From Microbacterium sp. (lineage in GTDB: Bacteria; Actinomycetota; Actinomycetes; Actinomycetales; Microbacteriaceae), in assembly GCA_017306415.1 (NCBI GenBank), contig JAFKIL010000009.1, positions 1 to 64,000 of the forward strand: a stretch of 64,000 nucleotides of DNA, in the 5' to 3' direction. How positions within the stretch are numbered: position 1 is the stretch's first letter; each line of letters begins with the position of its first letter. The position numbers were made by a program, and so were the translations under genes. Of this stretch, positions 11,079-44,333 are shown in pieces. The notes under the pieces are model-generated. The model was not told where the DNA came from. It was given only the letters and a program-made list of their open reading frames with translations, and searched no databases.

Positions 11079-11108
11079 GGGGAGCGGCTCCACAGCGGGC
11101 CGCTCCCC
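11079..11108. promoter_or_regulatory. Intercistronic hairpin after the binding-protein gene
   Basis: GGGGAGCGGC and GCCGCTCCCC form a perfect 10-bp stem with a 10-nt loop between the binding-protein stop and the permease start. No T-run follows, so read-through is expected. Such hairpins usually protect the upstream mRNA or cause partial termination, giving more binding protein than permease. Confidence 0.7.
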
Positions 11109-11121
11109 AGGAGGACCCACC

Positions 11122-15391: not shown

Positions 15392-15411
15392 CCGTCCATC
15401 TTCAGGCCCGT

Positions 15412-15426
15412 ACTTATCCGCTAAGT
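15412..15426 (+). promoter_or_regulatory. GntR-type operator 3
   Basis: ACTTA-TCCGC-TAAGT, a perfect 5-bp inverted repeat with a 5-bp spacer, lies 21 nt upstream of the GTG at 15448. It implies a separate regulated promoter for the RraA/GH5/ADH/lactonase operon. The -10 and -35 boxes are not clear. Confidence 0.65.
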
Positions 15427-15447
15427 TGATTTGCAAGGAGGCTGTCC

Positions 15448-16116: not shown

Positions 16117-16165
16117 TCCGCCCGTGCACCATCATGAACCCCATGTATTCGAAGGAGAATCCAGA

Positions 16166-18300: not shown

Positions 18301-18301
18301 C

Positions 18302-19171: not shown

Positions 19172-19208
19172 CTCTGCGGACGGCGGCGAGGGAGCGATGA
19201 ACTCATCA

Positions 19209-19223
19209 GCACACCTGCTAAGT
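19209..19223 (+). promoter_or_regulatory. Degenerate GntR-type operator before gntR
   Basis: GCACA-CCTGC-TAAGT keeps the right half-site and the spacer of the regulon palindrome, but the left half-site is changed. It lies 48 nt upstream of the regulator gene. A weak site is what one expects for mild autoregulation. Confidence 0.45.
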
Positions 19224-19270
19224 TCTCACGCAGTACGGGTGACTACTCGCACGCGACGGGAAGGGCTGAC

Positions 19271-24513: not shown

Positions 24514-25137
24514 TCAGGCGTTTCCCGCGGGCAGCGCATCCGCCTGCGTCTGTAGCGGGGTCGACGCCTCCCGCGACTCGGCACGGCGGCGGATGATGAG
24601 GTCCCGCAGCTCGCGCGCCTGCGCGACGTGGAGGTCCATGGATGCCGAGCCGGACTGGTGCTCGAACTCCTCGACGAACTCGGTGAGCTCGAGATCGAAC
24701 GGAGCATCCTCGCCGACCTCGATGGTGCGGTCGCGGAAGCGGTACTTGGCGATCTGTCGCTCCCTGGCCTCGATCTCGGTCGTGAGGAGGTCGATGAGCG
24801 CGTCCTCGCCGAGAAAGCCGATGAAGTACAGGCGCGCGCGGATCTCGGAGTCGAACGGGTACACGGCGGGAACGTAGGGACTGTTCAGCCACCCCATGAA
24901 GACCTGACGGCCGAGGTCGGTCGCACTGTAGATCTTGGCGTCCTGGGCGCCGGGGCGCTCGCTCACAGTGAAGGTGGCCCACCCGTTCTCGGCCATGGTC
25001 GTGAGCGACCGGTAGACCTGACTCATCTGCGTGCGCGGCCGCATGAAGACGCCCTGCAGGTCCATGAACCGCTTCAGGTCGTAGCCGGTGCGCGGCTTCA
25101 TGAGCAGGACGCCCAGCAGCAGGTGCTCCAGCTTCAT
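24514..25137 (-). CDS. PadR-family regulator
   Basis: This 207-residue protein has a PadR winged helix (LEHLLLGVLLMKPRTGYDLKR, then FMRPRTQMSQVYRSLTTMAENGW and a wing KIYSATDLGRQVF) and a C-terminal helical dimerisation domain (Vir_C-like). PadR repressors control neighbouring genes and respond to small molecules. It is divergent from the sulfatase/ABC operon across an AT-rich spacer, so it most likely regulates that operon. The start at 25137 has AGGAG 4 nt upstream; an ATG at 25149 with AGGAG 8 nt upstream is equally possible and adds four residues. Confidence 0.78.
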   Translation of the reverse strand: MKLEHLLLGVLLMKPRTGYDLKRFMDLQGVFMRPRTQMSQVYRSLTTMAENGWATFTVSERPGAQDAKIYSATDLGRQVFMGWLNSPYVPAVYPFDSEIRARLYFIGFLGEDALIDLLTTEIEARERQIAKYRFRDRTIEVGEDAPFDLELTEFVEEFEHQSGSASMDLHVAQARELRDLIIRRRAESREASTPLQTQADALPAGNA

Positions 25138-25306
25138 AGGGCTCCTCATGGGCTTATCTCCTCTCAGCCTAGGGGTGCTCGGCCTCGAAGCAAGCATTCC
25201 ACAAGTGATAACAATCTTATTCAACTTGTAGAATCCATGACGATTTCCTGTTAGCTTCTCCGCAAGGTCGGTCCATGGAGGACCGCACGACCCGGAAGAG
25301 ACACCG
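25138..25306. promoter_or_regulatory. AT-rich divergent promoter region of the sulfatase operon
   Basis: This short spacer is strikingly AT-rich for the window around 25198-25255. ACAAGT at 25201-25206 and ACTTGT at 25224-25229 form an inverted repeat with a 17-bp spacer, a plausible PadR or other operator. Promoters for both the padR gene and the ABC operon must lie here; exact -10 boxes are not certain. Confidence 0.5.
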
Positions 25307-26857
25307 ATGTTCAACTTCAGGAAGCGCCTTGCTGCAACAGCAGCCGCCGTCGCGGTCGCCGCCGTAGCCCTGGCGGGCTGCTCCGGCTCGAGCTCCGGCT
25401 CCAGCTCCGGCGCCGGCGCGGGTGACGGGACCCTCACGATCGCCACGATCGTCCCGTCGAGCACTTTCGCGGCCAACAACGTGCCGTGGGCCAACGAGTC
25501 GCCGTACCTCCAGGCGGTCTACGACACTCTGCTGCATGCCAAGCCGGACGGCACCGTCGAGCCGTGGCTGGCCACCAAGTGGTCCTACAACACCGACAAG
25601 ACCGTCCTCACCCTCACCCTGCGCGACGACGTCACCTTCACGGACGGCACCAAGTTCGACGCCTCCGCGGCCGCGCAGAATCTGCTCCGCTTCCGCGACG
25701 GGACCTCTCCGCAGAAGGCCTATCTCGCGACCTTGAAGGATGCCACGGCCGTCGACGCCACCACGCTGCGCCTCACGCTCAGCGCACCCAACCCCTCTCT
25801 GCTGTCGTTCCTCACGCAGAACCCCGGACTCATGGAGAGCCCCAAGCACTTCGGCGCGGCGGATGAGAAGACCACTCCGGTCGGCTCCGGCCCCTACGTC
25901 CTCGACACGAAGGCCACCGTCGTCGGCTCCTCGTACGTCTTCACGAAGAACGCCAAGTACTGGGCGCCGAAGGAGCAGCACTACGCGAAGATCGTGATGA
26001 ACGTCTTCTCGACCCCCACGGCGGTCCTCAACGCGATCAAGGGCGGTCAGATCGACGGCGCGCCGCTCGTCGACAACTCGACCATCGACCAGATCAAGGC
26101 CGCCGGCTACACGGTGAACGGCCAGCAGCTGAACTTCTTCGGCCTCCTGCTGTTCGACCGCGGAGGCGCGATCTCGCCGGCTCTCGCGGACGTCCGAGTG
26201 CGCCAGGCGATCAACTACGCCTTCGACCGCAAGGCCCTGCTGAAGGCCGTCGGCCACGGCTACGGCGACGTGACGTCGTCGATCTTCTCGCCCGACTCCT
26301 CCGGGTACGACAAGGCGCTCGACGACTACTACACGTACGACCCCGCCAAGGCGAAGTCGCTCCTGAAGGAGGCCGGGTACAGCGCCGGGCAGATCACCCT
26401 GACGATGCCGACGTCGTCGAACTTCACCCCCGCGACGTACGCGCTGACGAAGCAGTACCTGTCGGACATCGGCATCAAGGTGAACGAGGTCAACGTGGCG
26501 GGCAGCAGCTTCCTCGCCGACCTGCTCGCGGCGAAGTACGCGGCCACCGTGATGCAGCTGAAGGCTGCGCCGACGACGTGGGAGACGCTCACCCTGGACG
26601 TGCTCCCCAAGGCCGGCTGGAACCCGTTCCACACCGAGGACCCCACCGTCGCCAAGCTCGCCGCCACCGTGCAGAGCGGCTCGGATGCCGAGGCTGCCGC
26701 CGCGGCGAAGGAGCTCAACGCCTACATCGTCAAGCAGGCGTGGTTCGCACCGTGGTACCGCCCGCAGCAGACGTACGCGACCAACGCGAAGACGTCGGTC
26801 GAGACCCAGACGGGCAACGCCTACCCGTACCTCTGGAACATCGTCCCCAAGGGCTGA
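25307..26857 (+). CDS. ABC transporter substrate-binding lipoprotein, family 5
   Basis: This 516-residue lipoprotein has a lipobox LAGC (C25) followed by a Ser/Gly linker. The family-5 signatures are the same as in the 9535 protein (WLATKWSYNTDKTVLTLTL, VRQAINYAFDRKALLKAVG), but the two are clearly diverged. The operon partners are three sulfatases, a GH3 enzyme and FGE. This suggests that the ligand is a sulfated oligosaccharide, not a peptide; that is inference. A GGAAGAG site precedes the ATG. The gene is followed by the strongest hairpin of the window. Confidence 0.87.
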   Translation: MFNFRKRLAATAAAVAVAAVALAGCSGSSSGSSSGAGAGDGTLTIATIVPSSTFAANNVPWANESPYLQAVYDTLLHAKPDGTVEPWLATKWSYNTDKTVLTLTLRDDVTFTDGTKFDASAAAQNLLRFRDGTSPQKAYLATLKDATAVDATTLRLTLSAPNPSLLSFLTQNPGLMESPKHFGAADEKTTPVGSGPYVLDTKATVVGSSYVFTKNAKYWAPKEQHYAKIVMNVFSTPTAVLNAIKGGQIDGAPLVDNSTIDQIKAAGYTVNGQQLNFFGLLLFDRGGAISPALADVRVRQAINYAFDRKALLKAVGHGYGDVTSSIFSPDSSGYDKALDDYYTYDPAKAKSLLKEAGYSAGQITLTMPTSSNFTPATYALTKQYLSDIGIKVNEVNVAGSSFLADLLAAKYAATVMQLKAAPTTWETLTLDVLPKAGWNPFHTEDPTVAKLAATVQSGSDAEAAAAAKELNAYIVKQAWFAPWYRPQQTYATNAKTSVETQTGNAYPYLWNIVPKG

Positions 26858-26864
26858 TCCCGCC

Positions 26865-26896
26865 GGGGATGGGGCGGCGGCCGCCGCCCCATCCCC
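26865..26896. promoter_or_regulatory. Perfect 32-nt inverted repeat after the binding-protein gene
   Basis: GGGGATGGGGCGGCGG is followed directly by its exact complement, giving a 16-bp perfect palindrome between the binding-protein stop and the permease start. It can fold as a very stable hairpin. It has no T-run and probably protects the upstream mRNA or attenuates the permease genes. Confidence 0.75.
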
Positions 26897-26914
26897 GCAC
26901 AGGAAGGAACCGCG

Positions 26915-27856
26915 ATGCTGACATTCATCGCCCGCCGCCTGGCATCGGGCGTCATCCTGCTGATCACGATCAGCGTGGTGGCGTTCCTCCTGCTGTACGC
27001 CGGGGGCGGCGACATCGCCCGGCGCCTCCTCGGGGAGGACGCGTCGCCGGCCACGGTGGCGCAGAAGGCGCACGAGCTCGGCCTCGATCAGCCGCTGATC
27101 GTCCAGTTCGGGACCTGGCTGTCGGGCGCCGTGCGCGGCGACTTCGGCACCTCGTGGTTCACCAGCCAACCCGTGTCGGACGCCATCCTCAGCCGGCTCT
27201 CGGTCACCCTCTCGCTCGTCTTCGGCGCCACGCTCCTCATCGCCGTCGTCTCGGTCGTGCTCGGCGTCCTCGCCGCGACCCGTGGCGGCATCGTGGACAC
27301 GATCGTCCAGGTGCTCTCGCTGATCGGCACCGCGATCCCGGGCTTCCTCATCGCGCTCGGGCTCGTACTCGTCTTCGCCATCAACCTCGGCTGGTTCAAG
27401 CCGACCGGCTACGTGCAGTTCGCCGACTCTCCCGCCGGATGGCTGGGCTCGATCACGCTTCCCGTCATCGCCCTCTCGCTCGGCGGGATCGCCGGCGTCA
27501 CCCAGCAGATCCGCGGCTCCATGCTCGACTCGCTCCGCCAGGACTACGTCCGCACGCTCCGCAGCCGCGGCATCTCGCCGCGCTCGGTGATCCTCAAGCA
27601 CGTCCTGCGCAATGCCGCAGGCCCCGCGCTCGCCGTGCTCGGCGTGCACTTCGTTGGCCTCCTGGGCGGTGCCGTGATCATCGAGCAGATGTTCGCCATC
27701 CCCGGGATGGGGCAGGTCGCGGTCACCGCGACGTCGCAGGGCGACATCCCCCTCGTGATGGGACTCGTGCTCGCCACCGCCGTGCTCGTCGTCCTGCTCA
27801 ATCTCGTCGTCGACCTCGCTCAGGGGTGGCTCAACCCGAAGGTGCGCCTGTCATGA
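26915..27856 (+). CDS. ABC transporter permease, DppB type
   Basis: This 313-residue permease has six membrane segments (first at LASGVILLITISVVAFLLLY), the GDFGTSWFTSQPVSDAIL periplasmic motif and the cytoplasmic EAA-like loop (DYVRTLRSRGISPRSV, HVLRNAAGP). It is a paralogue of the 11122 permease. It overlaps the next gene by four bases. AGGAAGGA precedes the ATG. Confidence 0.9.
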   Translation: MLTFIARRLASGVILLITISVVAFLLLYAGGGDIARRLLGEDASPATVAQKAHELGLDQPLIVQFGTWLSGAVRGDFGTSWFTSQPVSDAILSRLSVTLSLVFGATLLIAVVSVVLGVLAATRGGIVDTIVQVLSLIGTAIPGFLIALGLVLVFAINLGWFKPTGYVQFADSPAGWLGSITLPVIALSLGGIAGVTQQIRGSMLDSLRQDYVRTLRSRGISPRSVILKHVLRNAAGPALAVLGVHFVGLLGGAVIIEQMFAIPGMGQVAVTATSQGDIPLVMGLVLATAVLVVLLNLVVDLAQGWLNPKVRLS

Positions 27857-29691
27857 TCGACCCTCTCGCCGCCGACCTCACCGATGAGATCGCCGCCGCG
27901 ACGCAGCGCTCGACCCGCTCACTGCTGCGCAGGCTCCTGCGCAAGCCCATCGCGATCGCCTCGCTCTCGTTCCTCGTGCTCGTGGTGCTCGTCGCCATCG
28001 TGGGTCCGCTGCTCGCACCGCACAGCCCCGACACGGCCTCCGCGGCCGACGTGCTCGGGCCGATCACGGGTGCGCACCCGCTCGGAACCGACAGCGCGGG
28101 CCGGGATGTGCTGTCGCGGCTGCTGTTCGCGACCCGCTTCAGCATCGCGGGCGCCGCCCTCGCGCTCGTCGTCGCCGCGGTGATCGGCGTCACGGGGGGC
28201 CTGTTCGCCGGCTACTACGGCCGATGGCTAGAGGGCACCTCGGCCTGGATCGCCGGCCTCATCCAGGCCCTCCCCGGCATCGTCGTCCTCCTCGCCGCCC
28301 GCGCCGTGCTCGGACCCTCGATGTGGACCTCGATGGCGATCTTCGGCATCCTGCTCTCGCCCGCGTTCTACCGGCTCGTCTACTCGACCGTGTCGGCCGT
28401 GCGCGACGAGCTCTACGTCGACGCTGCCCGCGTCTCGGGGCTGAGCGACGCCCGCATCATCACGCGGCACATCCTCACGGTGGTCCGCGGACCAGCGCTC
28501 GTGCAGGCGTCGTTCGTGACCGGCGTGGCGATCGCGATCCAGGCGGGGCTCGAATTCCTCGGCCTCGGCGACCTCTCCATCCCCACCTGGGGCGGGATGC
28601 TCAACGACGGGTTCGCCAGCATCTACTCCGACCCGCTGCTCATGCTGTGGCCGAGCCTCGCGATCGGGCTGACCTGCGTCTCCCTCGTGCTGCTCGCCAA
28701 CGCGCTGCGCGACACGCTCGAGCGCAGCGGCAGCCGCCGCAGCCGTCGTCGGGAACGCGCCCTGGTGCCGCCGGTCATCGAGCCGCAGCCGGTGCTGCGA
28801 CACGACGGCGTCTCCCGGTTCGCCGACGGCGACGTCCTCCTCGAGATCGCCGGTCTGGCCGTCGGCTACGGCCAGGATGACGGCACCGTGAAGACCGTCG
28901 TCGAAGACGTGTCGCTCACGGTCCACCGCGGCGAGGTGCACGGCCTCATCGGCGAATCGGGCTCCGGCAAGACGCAGACCGCGTGGTCGGTCCTGCGCCT
29001 GCTGCCCGCGGGCGGCCGCATCGTCGGCGGATCGATCGTCTTCGAGGGCGTCGACCTCGCGACCGTGAGTGAGACCCGGATGAACGAGCTGCGCGGGGCG
29101 CGGATCGCCTACGTCCCGCAGGAGCCGATGTCGAACCTCGACGCGACGTTCACGGTGGGCAGCCAGCTGGTCGAGCCGATGCGCGTCAAGCTGGGGCTGA
29201 ACCGTCGCCAGGCCACCGCCCGCGCGCTCGAGCTGCTCGAGCGCGTCGGCATCCCCAACCCCCCGCGCACGTTCCGCTCGTACCCGCACGAGATCTCCGG
29301 CGGGATGGCGCAGCGCGTCCTGATCGCGGGCGCCGTATCGTGCGATCCCGACCTCCTCATCGCGGACGAGCCCACCACGGCGCTCGACGTGACCGTCCAG
29401 GCCGACGTCCTCGACCTCCTGCGCGGACTGCAGGAGGAGCGGAACATGGGGATGATCCTTGTCACCCACAACTTCGGGGTGGTGGCCGACATCTGCGACA
29501 CCGTGTCGGTGATGCGCGCCGGCCGGATCGTCGAGACCGGCGGGATCGACGATCTCTTCGCGCGCCCGCAGCATCCGTATACGCAGTCCCTCTTCGACGC
29601 CGTGCTGGAGGACCTCCCGGCACGCCCGTCCGGTGACGACAGGTCCTCGAGCGCGCCCACGCGCACCCCGCAGGAAGGAGCCGTCCGATGA
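27853..29691 (+). CDS. Fused DppC-type permease and first ATPase
   Basis: This 612-residue chain has a DppC-type permease in residues 1-290 (HPLGTDSAGRDVLSRLLF; EAA loop ELYVDAARVSGL) and an OppD-type ATPase from about 325 (Walker A GESGSGKTQT, signature SGGMAQRV, LLIADEPTTALDV). The same two-domain order begins the 12057 protein, but here the second ATPase is a separate gene that overlaps the stop by four bases. Comparing the two loci shows how the triple fusion may have arisen by loss of one stop codon. Confidence 0.88.
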   Translation: MIDPLAADLTDEIAAATQRSTRSLLRRLLRKPIAIASLSFLVLVVLVAIVGPLLAPHSPDTASAADVLGPITGAHPLGTDSAGRDVLSRLLFATRFSIAGAALALVVAAVIGVTGGLFAGYYGRWLEGTSAWIAGLIQALPGIVVLLAARAVLGPSMWTSMAIFGILLSPAFYRLVYSTVSAVRDELYVDAARVSGLSDARIITRHILTVVRGPALVQASFVTGVAIAIQAGLEFLGLGDLSIPTWGGMLNDGFASIYSDPLLMLWPSLAIGLTCVSLVLLANALRDTLERSGSRRSRRRERALVPPVIEPQPVLRHDGVSRFADGDVLLEIAGLAVGYGQDDGTVKTVVEDVSLTVHRGEVHGLIGESGSGKTQTAWSVLRLLPAGGRIVGGSIVFEGVDLATVSETRMNELRGARIAYVPQEPMSNLDATFTVGSQLVEPMRVKLGLNRRQATARALELLERVGIPNPPRTFRSYPHEISGGMAQRVLIAGAVSCDPDLLIADEPTTALDVTVQADVLDLLRGLQEERNMGMILVTHNFGVVADICDTVSVMRAGRIVETGGIDDLFARPQHPYTQSLFDAVLEDLPARPSGDDRSSSAPTRTPQEGAVR

Positions 29692-30554
29692 CCGCGACGC
29701 TGATCCGCATCGAGGACGTCGAGGTGGAGTATCCCGCCAAGGGCTTCCGTGCGACGCCGTTCCGCGCGCTGAAGGGCGTCTCTCTCGAGATCGCGCCGGG
29801 CGAGACGGTGGGCCTCGTGGGGGAGTCCGGGTCGGGGAAGACCACGCTCGGCCGCGCGGTCCTCGGGCTCGCACCCGTCACGGGCGGACGGATCCTCTAC
29901 GGTGACAGGGACATCTCGCACCTCGGCCGCCGGGAGCGGCGGGTGCTGTCCCAGGACATCCAGGTCGTCTTCCAGGACCCCTACACATCGCTGAACCCGT
30001 CCATGACGATCGAGCAGATCCTGATGGAGCCGCTGATGGTCCGCCGGATGTCGTCGCGCGACGCGCGCTCGCGGGTGCGCGGGCTCCTCGACGAGGTGCG
30101 CCTGCCGAAGAACGCCGGCGAGCGTCTGCCGCGCGAGTTCAGCGGCGGGCAGCGTCAGCGCGTCGCGATCGCCCGTGCGCTCGCCCTCCAGCCGAAGCTC
30201 ATCGTCTGCGACGAGCCGGTCTCCGCCCTCGACCTGTCCACGCAGGCCCGCGTGCTGGAGCTGTTCACCGAGATCCAGCAGCAGACCGGCGTCGCGTACC
30301 TCTTCATCTCCCACGACCTCGCCGTGGTCCGTCACCTGAGTCGCCGGGTCGCCGTCATGTACCACGGCGAGATCGTGGAATGGGGCGACGCCGAGCAGGT
30401 CACGACCCGGCCGGAGCATCCCTACACGAAGCGCCTCTTCCTCGCCGCCCCGGTGCCCGACCCGCAGCTCCAGGCGCAGCGGCGCGCGGAACGGCATCGC
30501 CTCCTCGCGGAGCAGAACCGGGTGAGCACCAGCACCGTGACCGTCTCCGTCTGA
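29688..30554 (+). CDS. ABC transporter ATP-binding protein, OppF type
   Basis: This 288-residue ATPase has Walker A GESGSGKTTLG, Q-loop VFQDPYTSLNPSM, signature SGGQRQRV, Walker B LIVCDEPVSALD and the C-terminal HPYTKRLFLAAPVPDP typical of OppF. It pairs with the ATPase domain of the preceding fusion to form the two nucleotide-binding sites of the transporter. It is followed by sulfatase 1 after 17 nt. Confidence 0.9.
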   Translation: MTATLIRIEDVEVEYPAKGFRATPFRALKGVSLEIAPGETVGLVGESGSGKTTLGRAVLGLAPVTGGRILYGDRDISHLGRRERRVLSQDIQVVFQDPYTSLNPSMTIEQILMEPLMVRRMSSRDARSRVRGLLDEVRLPKNAGERLPREFSGGQRQRVAIARALALQPKLIVCDEPVSALDLSTQARVLELFTEIQQQTGVAYLFISHDLAVVRHLSRRVAVMYHGEIVEWGDAEQVTTRPEHPYTKRLFLAAPVPDPQLQAQRRAERHRLLAEQNRVSTSTVTVSV

Positions 30555-30571
30555 TCCGAGAAAGCTCTGCC

Positions 30572-32332
30572 ATGCGCGCCATCATCCTCATGTTCGACAG
30601 CCTCAACCGGCACATGCTGCCGCCCTATGCCGACACGTTCGTCGACGCGCCGAACTTCGCCCGGCTGGCCGAGAAGGCGGTCACGTTCGACAACTTCTAC
30701 GCGGGGTCGCTGCCCTGCATGCCGGCGCGGCGGGAGATGCACACGGGCCGCCACAACTTCCTGCACCGCAGCTGGGGACCGCTGGAGCCGTTCGACGACT
30801 CGATGCCGGAGATGCTCAAGGATGCCGGCATCCACACGCACCTCGTGACCGATCACCAGCACTACTGGGAGGACGGCGGGGCGACCTACCACACGCGCTA
30901 CAACACGTGGGAGTTCTTCCGCGGTCAGGAGGGCGATGCCTGGAAGGGCGACGCCGACGCGATGCGCGGCGTCCGGTTCCCCGCGACGCTGCGGCGGCAG
31001 GACGAGGTGAACCGCCGATACATGACGACCGAGGCCGATCACACCCAGACCCGCACGGTCGATGCCGGGCTGGAGTTCCTCCACACGAACGCGGCCGCGG
31101 ATCGGTGGATGCTGCAGCTGGAGCTGTTCGACCCGCACGAGCCGTTCTTCGTGCACCAGCGGTTCCGCGACAGGTACCGCGAGGACGCCCCTCCCGCCCC
31201 GTTCGACTGGCCGCCGTACAGCAAGGTCGTCGAATCCGACGACCTGGTGGCGGAGGCCCGCCGCGAGTACGCCGCCCTCGTGTCGATGTGCGACCACTCG
31301 CTCGGCCGGCTCCTGGACACGATGGACGAACTCGCGCTGTGGGACGACACGATGCTGATCGTCAACACCGACCACGGCTTCCTCCTCGGCGAGCACGGCT
31401 GGTGGGCGAAGTCCGTGCAGCCCTGGTTCAACGAGCTCGTGCACCTGCCGATGTTCGTGTGGGACCCGCGCAGCGCGGGACGTGACGACCGACGGGGAGA
31501 CCTTGCGCAGACCATCGACATCGCCCCCACGGTGCTCCGCTTCTTCGGCCTCGAGCCGACGGCGGACATGCTCGGGCGCGACCTCGCGAGGGAAGACCCC
31601 AAGGAGGGTGCGCTCTTCGGCATCCACGGCGGGCACGTCAATGTCACCGATGGGCGGTATGTCTACATGCGGGCGAGCGCGGAGCCCGGCAACAGTCCGA
31701 TCGAGGATTACACCCTCATGCCGACGCACATGCGCAGCAGGTTCGGGATCGGAGAGCTCGCGGACTGGCAGCCGGCCGCGCCGTTCACCTTCACCAAGGG
31801 GCTGCGCACGATGCGGATCGAGGCGGTCGGCGGATTCCGTATCGACTCATGGCAGCACGGCACGCTGCTGTGGGATCTGGAGAACGACCCCGGGCAGGAG
31901 CATCCGATCGTCGACGACGCGCAGGAGCTGCGGCTGATCGCACTGCTCGTCCGTCTCCTCCGCGAGAACGACGCCCCGGCGAGCGTCTTCGAGCGCCTCG
32001 GCCTTCCGGAGCGCGGCGAGCCGACCGTGCAGCATCTGCGCGCAGCGGTCGACGCCGAACGCGCGCGAGCGGTCGCCGAGCCGCTGCCGCGGCGCGAGGA
32101 CCTGCCGGCCGTGGAGATCCTGGAAAGGTCCGTCCACGAGCTGCTCGCAGACCGGGCGACCCGGGCGGTGGTGGAGCGTCACCTGCCGTGGCTCACCACG
32201 ACCGAGCAGGTCGCGTTCGGCCCGGCCGGATCGCTCCTCGGCCTGGCGCGCTCCGGTGCCGTGACCCGGGGGGTGCTCCTCGCCGTCGCGGAGGAGCTCG
32301 CCGGGGTCGTCGTCGAGGGCGCCGCACGATGA
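30572..32332 (+). CDS. Sulfatase 1 (formylglycine-type)
   Basis: This 586-residue type I sulfatase has a metal-binding D9 in ILMFDSLN. The C-x-P-x-R motif is C49-M-P-A-R53 in GSLPCMPARREMHTGR; its cysteine is converted to formylglycine, the catalytic residue. Further metal ligands are in VNTDHGFLLGEHG. A roughly 110-residue C-terminal helical extension after the catalytic domain is unusual. There is no signal peptide, so it works in the cytoplasm on an imported sulfated sugar. It is encoded in one operon with the FGE that matures it. The leaving sulfate position is not readable. Confidence 0.85.
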   Translation: MRAIILMFDSLNRHMLPPYADTFVDAPNFARLAEKAVTFDNFYAGSLPCMPARREMHTGRHNFLHRSWGPLEPFDDSMPEMLKDAGIHTHLVTDHQHYWEDGGATYHTRYNTWEFFRGQEGDAWKGDADAMRGVRFPATLRRQDEVNRRYMTTEADHTQTRTVDAGLEFLHTNAAADRWMLQLELFDPHEPFFVHQRFRDRYREDAPPAPFDWPPYSKVVESDDLVAEARREYAALVSMCDHSLGRLLDTMDELALWDDTMLIVNTDHGFLLGEHGWWAKSVQPWFNELVHLPMFVWDPRSAGRDDRRGDLAQTIDIAPTVLRFFGLEPTADMLGRDLAREDPKEGALFGIHGGHVNVTDGRYVYMRASAEPGNSPIEDYTLMPTHMRSRFGIGELADWQPAAPFTFTKGLRTMRIEAVGGFRIDSWQHGTLLWDLENDPGQEHPIVDDAQELRLIALLVRLLRENDAPASVFERLGLPERGEPTVQHLRAAVDAERARAVAEPLPRREDLPAVEILERSVHELLADRATRAVVERHLPWLTTTEQVAFGPAGSLLGLARSGAVTRGVLLAVAEELAGVVVEGAAR

Positions 32333-34029
32333 CCTCGACGACGCAGCGGCGGCCGAACATCGTCTGGATCAGCACCCACGACATCAACCCCGACCTCGGC
32401 TGCTACGCGGGCGTCTGGCCGGGCGCCGAATACGCCCGCACGCCGAACCTCGACGCGCTCGCGGCGCGCGGCGTGCGCTTCGACAACGCGTTCGCGGCGG
32501 CCCCGATCTGCGCGCCCGCCCGGTCGGCGATCGTCACGGGGTGCTTCCCGACCGCCATCGGGACGATGCACATGCGGTCCAAGGCCGTCCCCCCGCCCGA
32601 GGTCCGGCTGCTGCCCCAGCTGTTCCGCGAGGCCGGCTACTACTGCACGAACAACTGGTTCACCGACTTCCAGGTCGACGTCCCGGAGCCGGCCTTCGAC
32701 GACTGCAGCAGCACGGCGCACTGGCGCAACCGCCCGGACGGCGCGCCGTTCTTCGCGATGTTCCAGGGCATGGTCACGCACGAGTCGCGGCTGTACACCG
32801 ACGAGGAGGTCTTCGCGGCGACGACCGCCCATGTCGCCCCCGAGATGCGTCACGATCCGGCGGCCGCGCCCCTTCCGCCGTACTACCCCGACGACGAGGT
32901 CTTCCGGCGCGCCTGGGCGCGCTACGCCGACCTCATCACCGAGATGGACCACTGGGCGGGGGAGCTCCTCGCCGAGCTCGAAGCGGACGGACTGCTCGAC
33001 GACACCATCGTGGTGTTCTGGAGCGACCATGGGAAGGGGATGCCGCGGGCGAAGCGCTGGCCCAACGAGTCGGGGCTGCGCGAGCCGCTCATCGTCAGCT
33101 GGCCGGGCGTCCTGCCCGAGAACGTCGCGGTGACGGGACTCGCCCACACGATGGATCTCGCGCCGACGATGCTCGCGCTCGCGGGGCTTCCGATCCCGCC
33201 GGGGATGCACGGCGTGCCCCTGTTCGACGGCGACGTGCCGGTCGCCGAGCCCAACGCCTTCACCTTCGGCGGGCGGGACCGGCAGGGCGAGGCGGACGAC
33301 CGCTCACGCACGGTGCGCGACCGGCGCTTCCGCTACATCCGGAACTTCTTCCCCGACAAGCCCGCGATGCTCCACACCGAGTACCCTGACCACCTCCCGA
33401 CCTGGAGCGTGTTCCGCCGGCTGGCCTCGGAGGAGTGCCAGCAGCGTGCGCGCGGCGAGCTGCCCTCGGCGATGTCGGCGGAGCAGCGGGCCGTGGTGGC
33501 CCAGTCCAAGCCCGCCGAGGAGCTGTACGACATCCAGGCGGATCCGCACGAGCTGGTCAACCTGGCGACCGATCCTGCGTTCGATGCCGACCTCGCGCGT
33601 CTTCGGGGGGCGCTCGACGAGTGGATGCGGCGCTACGGCGATGCCGGCGCCATACCGGAGGCCGCCCTCGAGGAGGAGTGGCGACCGCGCGGCCGGCGTC
33701 GACGGACGGCGCGACCGACCCTCGTCGACCGGGCGGGACAGCCCGGGTTCAGCTGCGAGACCGAGGGCGCGGTCGTCGCCTGGACGCTCGACCCCGCTTC
33801 GGACCCGGCGCCGGCGGGCCCGCTGCAGGCCGAGATCGGCATGCCGCCCGCGACCGGACGGGACTGGCGGCTGGGGCCGCTCGACGCGCCGCCCGGAGCG
33901 ACCGTCTGGGTCCGCGCATGGCGGCTCGGCTTCGAGCCCAGCGAGGAGGTCGTCCTGACGGCCGAGGCCGAGCCATCCCCCGATTCCCCCGGCATGCACA
34001 CGGAACCAGAGAGAGCGGAATGGACATGA
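32329..34029 (+). CDS. Sulfatase 2, resembling heparan N-sulfatase (SGSH-like)
   Basis: This 566-residue sulfatase has PNIVWISTHDINPDLGCYAG at the start, and FDNAFAAAPICAPARSAIV with C61-A-P-A-R65 as the formylglycine motif. Then follow REAGYYCTNNWFTDFQV and AHWRNRP, which are features of the N-sulfoglucosamine sulfohydrolase-like branch. Its FWSDHGKGMPRAKRWPNESG carries the later metal ligands. Residues after about 460 form an extra strand-rich domain. It has no signal peptide. The start overlaps the stop of sulfatase 1. Sulfamidase activity is a resemblance-based suggestion; an O-sulfatase is possible. Confidence 0.82.
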   Translation: MTSTTQRRPNIVWISTHDINPDLGCYAGVWPGAEYARTPNLDALAARGVRFDNAFAAAPICAPARSAIVTGCFPTAIGTMHMRSKAVPPPEVRLLPQLFREAGYYCTNNWFTDFQVDVPEPAFDDCSSTAHWRNRPDGAPFFAMFQGMVTHESRLYTDEEVFAATTAHVAPEMRHDPAAAPLPPYYPDDEVFRRAWARYADLITEMDHWAGELLAELEADGLLDDTIVVFWSDHGKGMPRAKRWPNESGLREPLIVSWPGVLPENVAVTGLAHTMDLAPTMLALAGLPIPPGMHGVPLFDGDVPVAEPNAFTFGGRDRQGEADDRSRTVRDRRFRYIRNFFPDKPAMLHTEYPDHLPTWSVFRRLASEECQQRARGELPSAMSAEQRAVVAQSKPAEELYDIQADPHELVNLATDPAFDADLARLRGALDEWMRRYGDAGAIPEAALEEEWRPRGRRRRTARPTLVDRAGQPGFSCETEGAVVAWTLDPASDPAPAGPLQAEIGMPPATGRDWRLGPLDAPPGATVWVRAWRLGFEPSEEVVLTAEAEPSPDSPGMHTEPERAEWT

Positions 34030-36488
34030 CACAGACCTCGACGCGGACCGAGCGCGCACAGGACATCGACGACAGCGTCATCGATGCGCGCGTCGGCGAG
34101 CTGACCCTCGAGGAGAAGGTCGCTCTGCTGACCGGCCGCGACTTCTGGACGACGCTCCCCATCGAGAAGATCGGCCTGCGCCGCATCCTGGTCTCCGACG
34201 GCCCGAGCGGCGTGCGCGGTGAAGCGTGGGACGAGCGCTCGCCCTCGCTCAACCTCCCCTCGGCGTCGGCGCTGTCGTCCTCGTGGGACGTCGACATCGC
34301 CCGGCGTTATGGCGCCGCCTCCGCCGTGGAGGCGCGTCGCAAGGGTGTCGACGTCGTGCTCGGACCCACGATCAACCTCCACCGCTCGCCGCTCGGCGGC
34401 CGGCACTTCGAGGCCTTCAGTGAAGATCCGGTGCTCACCGCGGCGCTCGCCGCCGCCTATGTGCGCGGCGTGCAGGACAACGGGGTCGGGGCGACGCCCA
34501 AGCACTACGTCGCGAACGACTTCGAGACCGAGCGGTTCAGCGCGGACGTGCAGGTGTCGGACCGCGCGCTGCGCGAGGTGTACCTCCGCGCGTTCGAGGA
34601 CGCCGTCGTCGAGGCGCGGGCGTGGCTGGTCATGAGCGCGTACAACGCCGTCAACGGCAGGACCGCGACCGAGAGCGACCTGCTGGAGACCCCGCTGAAC
34701 GACGAGTGGGGCTTCGACGGCGTCGTCATCAGCGACTGGACCGCGGTGCGCAGCATCGAGAGCGCGAGGCACGCTCAGGACCTCGCCATGCCCGGACCCG
34801 AGGGGCCCTGGGGCGTTGCCCTGGTCGAGGCCGTGCGGCGAGGCGAAGTCTCCGAGGAGGCGATCGACCGGAAGGTCCACCGCATCCTTCGGCTCGCTGC
34901 GCGCGTCGGCGCCCTCGAAGGCGTGGAGCCGCCCGTCGCCGCGCCGGTGCACGTCGAGGACGGCGTCGCCTTCGCGCGTGAGGCCGCCGCCGAAGGCATG
35001 GTGCTGCTGCGTAACGACGGCATCCTGCCCCTCCCTCGCCCGGCACGCATCGCCGTGATCGGCGACAACGCGCGCAACGCGCGGACGCAGGGCGGCGGAA
35101 GTGCGACGGTGGTCCCCGAGCACGTGGTCTCGCCGGTCGACGGGATCGCGGCCGCATTCCCCGATGCCGAAGTGATCTACGCTCTCGGTGCGGTCGTGCA
35201 GGAAGGACTGGCGGAACTCGACCGCTCGGCCATCCGCAACCCCGCAACGGGGGGCCCGGGTGCACGCGTGGAGTTCATCGACGACGCGGGGGAGGTCGTC
35301 TTCACGGAGGATCGCCTGGCCACCGGACTCGTCTACTTCGGCGGCGATGCGCCGCTCGGGCGTCTCGCGCGCCTCGTTCTCGAGACCGAGTACACGCCGG
35401 TACGGACGGAGGACGTCCGCCTCGGCTTCGCCGGCGTCGGCCGGGGGCGCGTGCTCGTCGACGGGAACACCATCGCGGATGCCGTGGCCGAGGCGGTCGG
35501 CACCGACCTCGGCGCCGCGCTGCTCTCGCCGCCCGCGATCTCGGCCCCGGTCTCCTTCGAGGGCGGGACGACCTACCGCCTTCGCGTCGAGTACGAGCCG
35601 CAGCGGCAGGGGGGCGCGCTCAGCCACGCCATGAGCATCACCGTCGGCACGGAGCCCGCCGATGTCGACGCCGACCTGCTCATCGCCGACGCCGCCCGCG
35701 CGGCATCCGCCGCGGACGTCGCCGTGGTCGTCGTGGGCACGAACTCCCGCGTCGAGTCCGAGGGGCATGACCGCACCTCGCTGGCCCTGCCCGGGCGGCA
35801 GGACGACCTCGTGCGCGCCGTCGTCGCGGCGAACCCGCGCACCGTCGTCGTGGTGAACGCCGGCTCTCCGGTGACGATGCCCTGGCGCGACGATGCGGCC
35901 GCGGTCCTGCTCACCTACTTCGGCGGGCAGGAGTACGGTGCCGCCCTCGGGGATGTGCTCAGCGGCGTCCGGGAGCCCGGCGGGCGGCTGCCCACCACGT
36001 GGCCCGCGACCCAGGCCGACGTCCCCGTGCTCGACGTCACCCCGGTGAACGGCGTGATGCGCTACGACGAGGGCATCCACATCGGCTACCGGGCGTGGCT
36101 GCGCGCGGGAACGGCTCCCGCGTATCCGTTCGGGTTCGGGCTCGGCTACACGACCTGGCGGGTCGAGGAAGCGACGACGGCGGGATTCGCCGACGATGTC
36201 GCTCGCATCGCCGTGCGCGTCACGAACACCGGCGACCGGCGGGGCAAGCACGTCGTGCAGGTGTACGCCGAGCGCCCCGACTCCGCCGTCGACAGGCCGG
36301 CCCGGTGGCTCGTCGGCTTCGCGGTGGTCCGTGCCGCCGCCGGCGAATCGCAGGAGCTCGCCATCGATGTGCCCCGCCGAGCCCTCGCGCACTGGGACGA
36401 CGGCTGGCAATACGAGCCGGGCGCGTACGCGCTCCACGTGAGCGAGTCGGTGGCCCATCCCGCCCTGCGCCTCGGCGTCGAGCTGTGA
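34026..36488 (+). CDS. Glycoside hydrolase family 3, cytoplasmic
   Basis: This is an 820-residue GH3 beta-glycosidase. The N-terminal barrel has the substrate-binding SDGPSGVRGE, K159-H160 in ATPKHYVANDF and the nucleophile D237 in VVISDWTAV. Then come the second alpha/beta domain with GGGSATVVPEHVVSPVDG, a PA14-like insert around residues 410-540, and a C-terminal fibronectin-like domain (NTGDRRGKHVVQVYAERP). It has no signal peptide. GH3 of this form removes glucose, xylose or related residues from the non-reducing end. Placed between sulfatases it should trim the desulfated oligosaccharide. An ATG at 34020 is an alternative start; 34026 gives the usual ATGA overlap. Confidence 0.87.
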   Translation: MTQTSTRTERAQDIDDSVIDARVGELTLEEKVALLTGRDFWTTLPIEKIGLRRILVSDGPSGVRGEAWDERSPSLNLPSASALSSSWDVDIARRYGAASAVEARRKGVDVVLGPTINLHRSPLGGRHFEAFSEDPVLTAALAAAYVRGVQDNGVGATPKHYVANDFETERFSADVQVSDRALREVYLRAFEDAVVEARAWLVMSAYNAVNGRTATESDLLETPLNDEWGFDGVVISDWTAVRSIESARHAQDLAMPGPEGPWGVALVEAVRRGEVSEEAIDRKVHRILRLAARVGALEGVEPPVAAPVHVEDGVAFAREAAAEGMVLLRNDGILPLPRPARIAVIGDNARNARTQGGGSATVVPEHVVSPVDGIAAAFPDAEVIYALGAVVQEGLAELDRSAIRNPATGGPGARVEFIDDAGEVVFTEDRLATGLVYFGGDAPLGRLARLVLETEYTPVRTEDVRLGFAGVGRGRVLVDGNTIADAVAEAVGTDLGAALLSPPAISAPVSFEGGTTYRLRVEYEPQRQGGALSHAMSITVGTEPADVDADLLIADAARAASAADVAVVVVGTNSRVESEGHDRTSLALPGRQDDLVRAVVAANPRTVVVVNAGSPVTMPWRDDAAAVLLTYFGGQEYGAALGDVLSGVREPGGRLPTTWPATQADVPVLDVTPVNGVMRYDEGIHIGYRAWLRAGTAPAYPFGFGLGYTTWRVEEATTAGFADDVARIAVRVTNTGDRRGKHVVQVYAERPDSAVDRPARWLVGFAVVRAAAGESQELAIDVPRRALAHWDDGWQYEPGAYALHVSESVAHPALRLGVEL

Positions 36489-36507
36489 CGACAGGAGAGA
36501 ACTGATC

Positions 36508-38016
36508 ATGAAGCGCCCCAACATCATCTTCGTCATGTCGGACGACCACGCCGCCCACGCCATCTCGGCCTATGGCAGCCGCGTCAACTCGACTCCGCAC
36601 CTCGACCGCATCGCTCACGAGGGTGTGCGGATGGATGCCGTGTTCTGCACGAACTCGATCTGCAGTCCGTCGCGCGCGACCATCCTCACCGGCACGTACA
36701 GTCACGTGAACGGGGTCTCGTCCATCTGGACCGAGATGGACTACCGGGTGCCGACGTTCCCGGAGGTGCTCCACGACGCGGGCTACCGCACCGCGATGTT
36801 CGGCAAGTGGCATCTCGGCGAACACGGGTCGTCCCTCCCGCGGGGCTTCGACGCCTGGAAGATCTTCCCGGGTCAGGGCGACTACGTGGATCCGGAGATG
36901 ATCGATGCGTCCGGTGCCGCCGTCGTGCCTGGTTACGCCACCGACATCGTGACCGACCTCTCGATCGACTGGATCGACAGTCTGGATGCGGACGAGCCGT
37001 TCTGCCTGATGCTGCACCACAAGGCGCCGCACCGGCCCTGGATCCCCGACCAGAAGCACAGGCACCTCTACGCGGACGGCAGCATCCCCGAGCCGGACAC
37101 CTTCTTCGACGACTACGCGACCCGCAGCAAGGCCGTGCGCGGTGTGCACATGACGATCGCCGACGACATGGGTGCCGACGATCTCAAGACGGAGGTGCCC
37201 GAAGAGCTGCGCGGTCCCGAGAACCGGGAGGCGCGGATGCGGTGGAAGTACCAGATCTACATGCGCGACTACCTGCAGTGCATCCAGTCGATCGACGACA
37301 ACGTGGGTCGCCTGCTCGACCACCTCGACGAGCGGGGGCTGACCGAGGACACCCTCGTCGTGTACACGTCCGATCAGGGGTTCTTCCTGGGCGACCACGG
37401 ATGGTTCGACAAGCGGCTCATGTTCGACCAGTCCCTGCAGATGCCGATGCTCATCCGCTGGCCGGCCGAGATCGCCGCGGGCGGGCGCTGCGAGGCCATC
37501 ATCACCAATGTCGACTTCGCCGCGACGTTCCTGGACGTGTGCGGGATCGACGCGCAGGTCGCCCTCCCCACGTCGCAGGGGCGCAGCTTCCGCGCACTGC
37601 TGCGCGGCGAGGAGGTCGAGGACTGGGCGGATGCCGCCTACTACCGCTACTGGGAGCACGACGACCCGATCCATGCGGCCCCCGCGCACTACGGCATCCG
37701 GACCGCCGATCACAAGCTCATCTACTACTACGGCGCCGGGCTCGGCGTCCCGGGCGCCTCGGAGCGCGAGTTCGAGCCGGAGTGGGAGCTCTACGACCTC
37801 CGCGCCGACCCCACCGAGGTGCGGAACGTGGCCGACGATCCGGCCCACGCGGGCGTGCGTGCGGAGCTCGAGCAGAAGCTGGCGGAGTACCAGTCCCGCT
37901 ACCGAGACGAGCCCTATGTCGGGCCGTCGACCCCGCGCCCCGAGTGGGGCCCGTACGACGCGGAACTGTTCGAGCGCGTGCAGACGTACGTCGAGAGCGT
38001 GCGCGCGTCGAGCTGA
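36508..38016 (+). CDS. Sulfatase 3, GlcNAc-6-sulfatase/mucin-desulfating-like
   Basis: This 502-residue sulfatase has KRPNIIFVMSDDHAAHAISA (metal aspartates), and FCTNSICSPSRATILTG with C52-S-P-S-R56, the canonical C-x-P-S-R formylglycine motif. FGKWHLG and YTSDQGFFLGDHGWFDKR complete the signature. The DDHAAHAISAYGS start and NSICSPSR pattern resemble the GlcNAc-6-sulfatase/mucin-desulfating branch, though several related specificities share it. There is no signal peptide. It is encoded 19 nt after the GH3 gene and 63 nt before FGE. Confidence 0.84.
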   Translation: MKRPNIIFVMSDDHAAHAISAYGSRVNSTPHLDRIAHEGVRMDAVFCTNSICSPSRATILTGTYSHVNGVSSIWTEMDYRVPTFPEVLHDAGYRTAMFGKWHLGEHGSSLPRGFDAWKIFPGQGDYVDPEMIDASGAAVVPGYATDIVTDLSIDWIDSLDADEPFCLMLHHKAPHRPWIPDQKHRHLYADGSIPEPDTFFDDYATRSKAVRGVHMTIADDMGADDLKTEVPEELRGPENREARMRWKYQIYMRDYLQCIQSIDDNVGRLLDHLDERGLTEDTLVVYTSDQGFFLGDHGWFDKRLMFDQSLQMPMLIRWPAEIAAGGRCEAIITNVDFAATFLDVCGIDAQVALPTSQGRSFRALLRGEEVEDWADAAYYRYWEHDDPIHAAPAHYGIRTADHKLIYYYGAGLGVPGASEREFEPEWELYDLRADPTEVRNVADDPAHAGVRAELEQKLAEYQSRYRDEPYVGPSTPRPEWGPYDAELFERVQTYVESVRASS

Positions 38017-38079
38017 ATCGGAGCGCGCACCCGGCGGGTGGGTCGAGGATGGATGCGAGCACGTGGGGGAGGGAGCGAG

Positions 38080-39069
38080 ATGACGACGGCGGCGGATGCG
38101 GCGAGCGGATCGTGCGGCGAGGGCTGCACCTGCGGGGCTCCGAGCAGGGGCGTCTTCGTCCAGCTCGGCGCGACGCCGCCGGCGCCTCCCGCCCCGGCGG
38201 GTGGCGCCCACGATCTCGAGCAGGTCTCGATCCCCGCCGGCACCTTCCTGATGGGCGACTCATCCGGTGACGAGAACAGGGGCGACGGGGAGTCGCCCCG
38301 GCACGAGGTGTCGCTCGACGCCTTCGAGATCGATGCCACGTCGGTCACGAACGACGCGTTCGCCCGCTTCGTGGAGGCGACCGGCTACGTCACGGAGGCG
38401 GAGGGCTTCGGCTTCTCCGCGGTCTTCCACCTGCTGTTGCGGGCGCCCGACGCCGACGTGATGGGCTCGGTCGCCGCCGCGCCCTGGTGGCTCGGCGTCC
38501 GCGGGGCGGATTGGCGGCACCCCGGGGGGCGCGACTCCGATCTCGACGGGCTGGGCGATCACCCGGTCACGCATGTGAGCTGGAACGACGCGGTCGCCTA
38601 CGCCGCCTGGGCGGGCCGCCGGCTTCCGAGCGAGGCCGAGTGGGAGTACGCCTCGCGGGGCGGCCGGGCGGGCGCGAAGTATCCGTGGGGTGACGACGAG
38701 GTGGATGCCGACGGGTGGCGCGCGAACATCTGGCAGGGCGAGTTCCCCGTGACGAACACGGCCGACGACGGCTATCTCGGGACCGCACCGGTCCGCTCGT
38801 TCGCTCCGAACGGGTACGGACTGTGGCAGACGGTCGGGAACGTGTGGGAATGGTGCGCGGACTGGTTCTCGCCGGGGTACTACCGCGCGTCGCCCGCCCG
38901 CGATCCGTGGGGTCCGGCGTCGGGTTCCGGACGGGTGATGCGCGGCGGCAGCTACCTGTGCCACATCTCGTACTGCAACCGCTACCGCAACTCCGCGCGC
39001 ACCTCGAACACCCCCGACTCCTCGATGGGGAATGCCGGGTTCCGCACCGTCGCCGCAGCCCCTACCTGA
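38080..39069 (+). CDS. Formylglycine-generating enzyme (sulfatase activator)
   Basis: This 329-residue FGE/sulfatase-modifying-factor protein has VSIPAGTFLMGD at the start of the domain, HPVTHVSWNDAVAYAAWAG, LPSEAEWEYASRGG, GNVWEWCADWF and the catalytic copper-binding cysteine pair C-H-I-S-Y-C in SYLCHISYCNRYR. It oxidises the cysteine of C-x-P-x-R sulfatases to formylglycine in the cytoplasm, with copper and oxygen. An N-terminal stretch with GSCGEGCTCGA adds four cysteines. As last gene of the operon it supplies the activator for the three sulfatases made with it. The ATG at 38080 follows GGGGGAGGGAGCGAG. Confidence 0.9.
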   Translation: MTTAADAASGSCGEGCTCGAPSRGVFVQLGATPPAPPAPAGGAHDLEQVSIPAGTFLMGDSSGDENRGDGESPRHEVSLDAFEIDATSVTNDAFARFVEATGYVTEAEGFGFSAVFHLLLRAPDADVMGSVAAAPWWLGVRGADWRHPGGRDSDLDGLGDHPVTHVSWNDAVAYAAWAGRRLPSEAEWEYASRGGRAGAKYPWGDDEVDADGWRANIWQGEFPVTNTADDGYLGTAPVRSFAPNGYGLWQTVGNVWEWCADWFSPGYYRASPARDPWGPASGSGRVMRGGSYLCHISYCNRYRNSARTSNTPDSSMGNAGFRTVAAAPT

Positions 39070-41128: not shown

Positions 41129-41135
41129 TCCGGCT

Positions 41136-41164
41136 GGGGGAGGCTCGGCGATCGAGCTTCCCCC
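41136..41164. promoter_or_regulatory. Intercistronic hairpin after the binding-protein gene
   Basis: GGGGGAGGCTCG and CGAGCTTCCCCC make a 12-bp stem with one G-U pair and a 5-nt loop, between the binding-protein stop and the ATPase start. It has no T-run. It is analogous to the hairpins at 11079 and 26865. Confidence 0.7.
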
Positions 41165-41185
41165 CTCCCTTCCCGAGGTAATCCC

Positions 41186-43020: not shown

Positions 43021-43037
43021 GGAAAGGGGATGCTCTG

Positions 43038-44291: not shown

Positions 44292-44333
44292 CCACATCTC
44301 GACCCAGGCGCAACGCCTCAGAAAGGAAGCACC

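What the first reader, a model, noticed from the sequence alone, without database searches (positions are those of the whole stretch)
24514..39069. A self-contained sulfated-glycan import and desulfation operon with its own sulfatase activator
Seen: padR divergent from binding protein, DppB-type permease, DppC-ATPase fusion, OppF-type ATPase, three sulfatases (formylglycine motifs C49-M-P-A-R, C61-A-P-A-R, C52-S-P-S-R), GH3 and FGE (C-H-I-S-Y-C pair), with very short gaps or overlaps. Known: FGE converts the C-x-P-x-R cysteine to formylglycine. Inference: since every enzyme lacks a signal peptide and the importer is Dpp-like, a sulfated oligosaccharide is taken up whole and desulfated in the cytoplasm. 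This is unlike the secreted, SusCD-type systems of Bacteroidetes and Planctomycetes. Sulfatases 2 and 3 resemble N-sulfatase and GlcNAc-6-sulfatase branches, which would point to a heparan- or mucin-like substrate.
Basis: partly seen in the sequence, partly recalled or inferred. Interest (0 to 1): 0.85.

Follow-up and report, generated by a model that had tools for sequence, protein, structure and literature searches.

The report
Import-then-desulfate operon for sulfated glucosides
This bacterium carries a gene set that seems to pull a sulfated sugar compound into the cell, strip off its sulfates with three enzymes it activates itself, and then cut out the sugar; the parts are known kinds, but the combination and its likely target are not established.

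Summary
The operon is real and as described. Import followed by cytoplasmic desulfation is well supported: no enzyme shows a signal peptide; relatives of sulfatase 1 stand near a relative of this fused Dpp importer in 14 of 80 loci and near an MFS permease in 32 of 80 (35 of 80 have neither); 23 of 23 genomes with sulfatase 1 carry a strong FGE, against 12 of 23 controls.

The heparan/mucin substrate is not supported. The two closest importer relatives outside the window's genome stand beside the same GH3 without sulfatases. That GH3 is nearest to BcpE2, a glucosidase of plant heterosides. Sulfatase 2 is nearer to λ-carrageenan 2-O-sulfatases than to human N-sulfatase, and no GH88 or heparinase II/III lyase was found in the genome. 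Sulfatase 1 has no close solved relative.

Best reading: a β-glucoside importer operon that gained a sulfatase/FGE module and now takes up a small sulfated β-glucoside. Sulfatase-linked members lie at several places in the importer tree, including Rhizobiales. It is a new variant of a known kind; the substrate is unproven.

The parts
24514..25149 (-). PadR-family regulator, divergent from the operon (start at 25149 likely; ATG also at 25137 and 25197)
   Evidence: PF03551 28.7 bits, cut-off 27; start codons; PadR relatives in 47 of 80 sulfatase-1 loci
25191..25239 (.). imperfect inverted repeat, two 16-nt arms 17 nt apart, possible PadR operator, overlapping a promoter-like site 25205-25234
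   Evidence: function inferred
25307..26857 (+). SBP_bac_5 lipoprotein, substrate-binding protein
   Evidence: PF00496 245.5 bits; lipobox LAGC; model m165e5150487b
26865..26896 (+). G+C-rich hairpin between SBP and DppB, no T run
   Evidence: folded at -39.5 kcal/mol for 26856-26905; role inferred
26915..27856 (+). DppB-type permease
   Evidence: PF00528, PF19300
27853..29691 (+). fusion of DppC-type permease and OppD-type ATPase
   Evidence: PF12911, PF00528, PF00005 in one frame; fusion kept in 15 of 15 linked loci listed
29688..30554 (+). OppF-type ATPase
   Evidence: PF00005, PF08352
30572..32332 (+). sulfatase 1 (Sulf1), C49-M-P-A-R; subfamily without a close solved relative
   Evidence: PF00884 113.9 bits
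32329..34029 (+). sulfatase 2, S1_8-like, C61-A-P-A-R; predicted position-2 sulfatase
34026..36488 (+). GH3, BcpE2-like beta-glucosidase type
36508..38016 (+). sulfatase 3, S1_11-like, C52-S-P-S-R; predicted 6-O-sulfatase
38080..39069 (+). formylglycine-generating enzyme (GTG 38038 or ATG 38053 also possible)
   Evidence: PF03781 281.6 bits; 2q17 8e-125; CHISYC

Best explanation
An importer operon for beta-glucosides to which a sulfatase module has been added. Shown: the gene set, intact sulfatase and FGE motifs, lack of signal peptides, and conserved linkage of Sulf1 with importers and FGE. Inferred: the SBP lipoprotein catches a small sulfated beta-glucoside (a short oligosaccharide or a glucoside of another compound); the DppB/DppC-OppD/OppF importer takes it in; the cytoplasmic FGE converts the motif cysteines to formylglycine; sulfatase 3 (S1_11-like) removes a 6-O-sulfate, sulfatase 2 (S1_8-like) a sulfate at position 2, Sulf1 a third sulfate at an unknown position; the GH3 then frees glucose or a similar sugar. 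PadR represses the operon until the compound or a product binds, by way of the repeat at 25191-25239 (inferred).
For: No signal peptide in window enzymes nor in most relatives: hydropathy of 2.0 or more in 3 of 85 Sulf1, 0 of 9 sulfatase 2, 0 of 26 GH3, 0 of 8 sulfatase 3, against 13 of 14 SBP rows (rows under 34% identity or with the start outside the frame dropped). A fused DppC-OppD importer lies near Sulf1 in 14 of 80 loci plus the second copy in the own genome, an MFS relative in 32 of 80, both in 1, neither in 35. FGE with E <= 6.4e-74 in 23 of 23 Sulf1 genomes against 12 of 23 controls (Fisher p 0.0002). Closest importer relatives carry a GH3 60-64% identical: 7 of 40 loci, including the two best matches. 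GH3 to BcpE2 (7pjj) E 2.5e-204 over the full length.
Against: 35 of the 80 Sulf1 loci show neither transporter within the stretch held, some on short contigs. In Neorhizobium the GH3 beside Sulf1 looks more like a beta-N-acetylhexosaminidase (116.9 bits, below its cut-off of 207), and in the own genome's second copy the GH3 is of yet another type, so the sugar need not be glucose everywhere. The window GH3 also matches an arabinopyranosidase model (496.6 bits) and misses the cut-offs of both models, 1300 bits. The SBP does not tell peptides from sugars. S1_11 includes GlcNAc-6-sulfatases, and the genome has one GH20 elsewhere.
Confidence: 0.55

Rival explanations
1. The operon takes up heparan- or mucin-derived sulfated amino sugars: sulfatase 3 removes 6S from GlcNAc/GlcNS, sulfatase 2 the N-sulfate, Sulf1 another sulfate.
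For: Pedobacter heparinus uses S1_8, S1_9 and S1_11 enzymes on heparin (PMC10154612). Sulfatase 3 is nearest to BT4656, a GlcNAc/GlcNS-6-sulfatase, and keeps D301/R303 and His residues in the aligned places.
Against: No GH88 or heparinase II/III family hit in the genome (heparinase I and other lyases not searched). 5g2t (S1_9) is not among the 42 PDB matches of Sulf1. GH3 of beta-glucosidase type. Sulfatase 2 closer to Gal-2-sulfatases than to human SGSH.
Confidence: 0.15
2. The operon is for sulfur, not carbon: any small sulfate ester is imported and stripped to give sulfate under sulfur limitation.
For: Three sulfatases of different type and MFS-linked Sulf1 relatives would suit a broad scavenger.
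Against: A glycosidase is built into the operon and recurs with the importer; no sulfur-metabolism gene among the operon genes.
Confidence: 0.15
3. The substrate is a galactan- or algal-type sulfated oligosaccharide (carrageenan, porphyran or ulvan fragments) taken up as short pieces.
For: Nearest solved relatives of sulfatase 2 are lambda-carrageenan sulfatases; S1_11 members also act on L-galactose-6-sulfate.
Against: No galactosidase or agarase/carrageenase among the operon genes; GH3 of glucosidase type; named carriers are mostly soil- or plant-type genera by name (habitat is my inference).
Confidence: 0.1

Closest known systems
Bifidobacterium breve UCC2003 sulfatase clusters for GlcNAc-6-sulfate
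   Same: Actinobacterial intracellular sulfatase fed by uptake of a small sulfated sugar (one passage in the review PMC7326374)
   Different: Here an FGE, three sulfatases, a Dpp-type importer with a DppC-ATPase fusion and a GH3 share one operon. That B. breve relies on an anaerobic activator (anSME) and another transporter type is recalled.
Pedobacter heparinus heparin/heparan pathway (S1_8, S1_9, S1_11, GH88, lyases)
   Same: Uses an S1_8 and an S1_11 sulfatase in sequence (PMC10154612)
   Different: Periplasmic, with lyases and GH88, which were not found in this genome for the families searched; no S1_9-like enzyme here
lambda-carrageenan cascade of Pseudoalteromonas distincta (S1_8A/B/C)
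   Same: Closest solved relatives of sulfatase 2; sulfatases clear the way for exo-glycosidases (PMC12549532 passages)
   Different: Periplasmic, galactose-based, with GH150/GH110/GH2 and S1_15 enzymes
BcpE2 GH3 of Streptomyces scabiei
   Same: Closest solved relative of the GH3 over its full length
   Different: Acts on unsulfated plant heterosides (PMC9426481 passages); no sulfatases are mentioned in the passages seen
Dpp-type importer + GH3 operons without sulfatases in the same order
   Same: SBP 47-58%, fused DppC-OppD, OppF 72-78%, GH3 60-64% identical
   Different: No sulfatase and no FGE within the 12-18 kb fetched

Membership tests
Type I formylglycine sulfatases (SulfAtlas family S1) | C-x-P-x-R motif and sulfatase domain | tested here: met
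   All three have PF00884 above cut-off and CMPAR, CAPAR, CSPSR
Type I formylglycine sulfatases (SulfAtlas family S1) | conserved motif and active-site-type residues and sulfatase fold in Sulf1 | tested here: met
   C49, P51, R53, D267, H268, K280 invariant in 38 sequences; the 50 best Foldseek rows are sulfatases or related phosphonate hydrolases, 14-20% identity. Roles of the residues recalled
SulfAtlas S1_11 (sulfatase 3) | closest to S1_11 structures; His and Asp/Arg recognition triad | tested here: met
   5g2v 6.9e-126, 7p24 8.5e-116; D301/R303 align with D361/R363 of 5g2v, His at 389 and 394. The review names residue types only; the numbers are my count. SulfAtlas itself was not on hand
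SulfAtlas S1_11 (sulfatase 3) | region that recognises the C2 N-acetyl or N-sulfate group | not tested
   Described as variable within S1_11; not mapped here
SulfAtlas S1_8 (sulfatase 2) | closest to S1_8 structures | tested here: met
   Best five PDB sequences are S1_8A/B/C, 4.1e-65 to 1.4e-50
N-sulfoglucosamine sulfohydrolase (heparan N-sulfatase) | N-sulfatase activity | not testable with these tools
   Human SGSH only 8.2e-23; S1_8 holds 2-O- and N-sulfatases
Choline-sulfatase (TIGR03417) | score over the curated cut-off of 433.45 bits | tested here: not met
   101.1, 107 and 171.5 bits
Aerobic formylglycine-generating enzyme | FGE domain and the two copper/active-site cysteines (role recalled) | tested here: met
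   281.6 bits, 2q17 8e-125 aligned over 48-338 with CHxSYC, CHISYC
Heparin/heparan degradation system | GH88 and heparinase II/III-type lyase | tested here: not met
   PF07470 and PF07940 have no match in the own genome; controls ring in 3 and 2 of 14
Dpp/Opp-type ABC importer | SBP family 5, two permeases, two ATPases | tested here: met
   one permease and one ATPase are fused
Dpp/Opp-type ABC importer | peptide as substrate | tested here: inconclusive
   Sequence and fold matches mix nickel, glutathione, peptide and opine binders
BcpE2-type GH3 beta-glucosidase | full-length similarity to BcpE2 | tested here: met
   7pjj, residues 6-820 to 6-819, 2.5e-204
BcpE2-type GH3 beta-glucosidase | PA14 domain set into the C-terminal domain | tested here: inconclusive
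   Pfam reports no PA14, though the C-terminal domain match is stretched over 384 residues; full-length match to the PA14-bearing BcpE2

The most novel reading that the evidence does not exclude
Sulf1 founds an uncharacterised sulfatase subfamily with at least 587 matching stretches in one scan, devoted to small sulfated glycosides that soil and plant-associated bacteria import whole. It has been coupled more than once with unrelated uptake systems (a fused Dpp ABC importer, an MFS permease), with FGE and PadR as travelling companions. In this window it has turned a plant-heteroside importer with a BcpE2-like glucosidase into a route for polysulfated glucosides, for instance plant glucose-disulfate toxins of the atractyloside kind (named from memory, no call).
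Probability: 0.25. Interest if true: 0.75.

Novelty: new variant of a known kind. Interest (0 to 1): 0.5.

Why it matters
Most characterised sulfated-glycan pathways that I know of are periplasmic or secreted. A widespread import-then-desulfate route in soil Actinomycetota and Rhizobiales would point to an overlooked pool of small sulfated glycosides. It also gives a sulfatase subfamily with a ready test set: importer, activator, three sulfatases and glycosidase in one transcript unit. The comparison with near-identical importer/GH3 operons that lack sulfatases gives a natural control for finding the substrate.

Tried and rejected
Choline-sulfatase: rejected on scores. Heparan/mucin: tested through sulfatase relatives, GH3 type and searches for GH88, heparinase II/III and GH20 in the own genome; one GH20 was found, the other two were not. 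Lyases such as heparinase I were not searched.

Substrate from the binding protein: PDB sequence search and Foldseek of a model did not discriminate. Subfamily of Sulf1 by structure: Foldseek gave many subfamilies at similar distance, so no placement. Placement against SulfAtlas itself was not possible; PDB entries stood in for it.

Promoter and terminator scan: one promoter-like and one terminator-like site, both within chance; no terminator after FGE was found.

The fused DppC-OppD protein as a mark of sulfatase systems: rejected. Relatives without sulfatases are common: of 57 matches I fetched 40 (left out: 3 in the own genome and 14 others), and 38 of 40 had no sulfatase detected by BLAST at 1e-12 within the stretch; a very divergent sulfatase would be missed.

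FGE controls came from the window's genus and family, while 18 of the 23 Sulf1 genomes are from other families of the order; three of the 23 controls (G260, G271, G282) are not printed by name. The importer tree counted changes only between 18 sulfatase and 7 GH3 rows, 32 rows being in no group; the sulfatase rows were found mostly through Sulf1, the others through the importer.

Papers: searches. The searches aimed at such an operon listed no title that describes it; the library is open-licence only. Seen as passages: PMC10154612 (plus sections 7 and 12), PMC9426481, PMC12549532, PMC5066984, PMC10958521, PMC7326374. All other papers: listing only.
Full report
What is there. The window is contig C6 of a 3.76 Mb genome in 13 contigs, G+C about 68% around the operon. 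The operon runs from 25307 to 39069 with a divergent PadR gene upstream. Pfam and NCBIfam give: SBP family 5, DppB-type permease, DppC-type permease fused to an OppD-type ATPase, OppF-type ATPase, sulfatase, sulfatase, GH3, sulfatase, FGE; PadR is marginal. Genes overlap by four bases (ATGA) at four junctions; gaps elsewhere are 17 to 63 bases.

Where the enzymes work. The SBP has a lipoprotein signal; the five enzymes show no hydrophobic N-terminus. The same holds for most relatives: 3 of 85 Sulf1, 0 of 9 sulfatase 2, 0 of 26 GH3 and 0 of 8 sulfatase 3 rows reach the hydropathy of 2.0 that 13 of 14 SBP rows reach. This is a plain hydropathy test.

Who the enzymes resemble. Sulfatase 3 is nearest to 5g2v (BT4656, GlcNAc/GlcNS-6-sulfatase; 6.9e-126) and other S1_11 structures, which include an L-galactose-6-sulfatase; the Asp/Arg pair and His residues are kept in the alignment. 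Sulfatase 2 is nearest to S1_8A, S1_8C and S1_8B, which the paper on them describes as galactose-2-sulfate 2-O-sulfatases of a lambda-carrageenan cascade; it notes xylose-2-sulfate and N-sulfoglucosamine activities in other S1_8 members (PMC12549532). Human SGSH is much further (8.2e-23). The Pedobacter N-sulfamidase is not among the solved structures listed and was not compared. Sulf1 has only weak, partial PDB matches, best 3.2e-21; its model (pLDDT 81.5) has the sulfatase fold at 14-20% identity to many subfamilies. None of the three reaches the choline-sulfatase cut-off. The GH3 aligns over its full length with BcpE2, 7pjj (2.5e-204), a promiscuous beta-glucosidase of plant heterosides (PMC9426481); in NCBIfam its best model is a beta-glucosidase at 769.6 bits, under that model's cut-off of 1300. 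The FGE is close to that of 2q17 (8e-125).

The importer tells more about the substrate than the sulfatases do. In 396 genomes of the order, 42 hold a match to the fused DppC-OppD at 1e-150. Of 57 matches I fetched 40. Seven of 40, including the two best matches, carry a GH3 60-64% identical to the window's, beside SBP, DppB, fused DppC-OppD and OppF; 2 of 40 have a detected sulfatase and 0 of 40 an FGE. One of these also has GH42 and GH43 genes. So the importer plus GH3 is a unit that exists without sulfatases, and the sulfatases look like an addition. In the window sulfatases 1 and 2 lie between OppF and GH3 and sulfatase 3 and FGE after it; in Streptomyces blattellae (L039) the order is importer, GH3, Sulf1, sulfatase 2.

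Sulf1 travels with uptake systems and FGE. A genome scan gave 595 stretches, 587 confirmed, the best 80 kept. Of these 80, 14 have the fused importer, 32 an MFS relative (27 within 1.3 kb), 1 both, 35 neither; 44 have FGE, 47 PadR and 34 a GH3 or GH1 relative. The two transporters avoid each other (Fisher p 0.006), though shared ancestry is not corrected for. Pfam confirmed MFS in the three proteins tested. The importer-linked set includes Devosia, Oryzicola, Neorhizobium and Mesorhizobium (Pseudomonadota), with sulfatase 3, GH3 or FGE relatives nearby. In the order, 23 of 396 genomes have Sulf1; 23 of 23 have an FGE hit at 6.4e-74 or better, against 12 of 23 controls (p 0.0002). Among relatives first sampled, 4 of 35 genomes of the window's genus have a strong Sulf1, so the trait is patchy.

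Trees. In the importer tree (57 rows) sulfatase-linked rows fall in four places: a 10-row group (Microbacterium resistens, Kribbella, Arthrobacter, Microbacterium sp. UFMG61, Rhizobiales), a 3-row group with the own genome's second copy, the window with L039, L042 and L052 (support 85/92, not starred), and L152 among GH3-linked rows. The programme's minimum is 3 changes, 2 forced by starred branches, counted against GH3-linked rows only. In the Sulf1 tree (86 rows) the importer-linked rows need 4 changes, 2 forced; the window's Sulf1 sits among MFS-linked and unassigned rows (support 90, open). A mosaic origin, with PadR and Sulf1 from an MFS-type module and importer and GH3 from a glucoside operon, fits but is inference.

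A second copy in the same genome. Contig C12 holds FGE (90% identical), Sulf1 (53%), TetR, a GH3 of another type, OppF, the DppC-OppD fusion, DppB and an SBP. Contig C11 has a third FGE-family gene with a sulfatase beside it.

Against heparan. GH88 and heparinase II/III families gave no match in the genome. One GH20 lies on contig C4. In Neorhizobium (L090) the GH3 beside Sulf1 resembles a beta-N-acetylhexosaminidase, 116.9 bits against a cut-off of 207, so amino sugars may be the substrate of some relatives. The heparan reading is thus less likely, not excluded.

Mechanism proposed: capture, import, FGE maturation, removal of sulfates at positions 6 and 2 and at one unknown position, then hydrolysis by GH3, under PadR control. 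Shown: genes, motifs, linkage. Inferred: substrate, order of steps, regulation.

Novelty. Intracellular sulfatases fed by uptake of a sulfated sugar are reported for Bifidobacterium breve (one passage in PMC7326374). The arrangement here was not described in any title listed. I rate it a new variant of a known kind, interest 0.5.

Noticed in passing
window 9451-20029: A second operon with a family-5 SBP and a fused DppC-OppD importer (12078-13784, 51% identical to the finding's), followed by RraA-like, GH5-family, zinc dehydrogenase, gluconolactonase-like and GntR genes, then a galactarate/altronate dehydratase on the other strand; probably sugar-acid or glycoside use.
   Followed up: partly
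window 26865-26896: Nearly perfect G+C-rich hairpin between SBP and DppB; could hold back transcription or protect the SBP message.
   Followed up: no
window 40109-46584: Downstream ribose-type ABC importer (Peripla_BP_4, ABC_tran, BPD_transp_2) and a GH1 gene; may belong to glucoside use but is not joined to the operon.
   Followed up: no
L010 (G000:C11), about 8648-11640: Sulfatase with CTAGR in place of C-x-P-x-R next to an FGE-family gene with CSPDYC; both appear to lack a signal peptide by eye.
   Followed up: no
L101: A Sulf1 relative in a metagenome bin named Lokiarchaeota, grouping with Paenibacillus; flagged for unlike letter make-up, could be binning or transfer.
   Followed up: no
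window 54825-63433: Another sugar operon: SBP family 1/8, permease, GH3 and GH4 genes.
   Followed up: no
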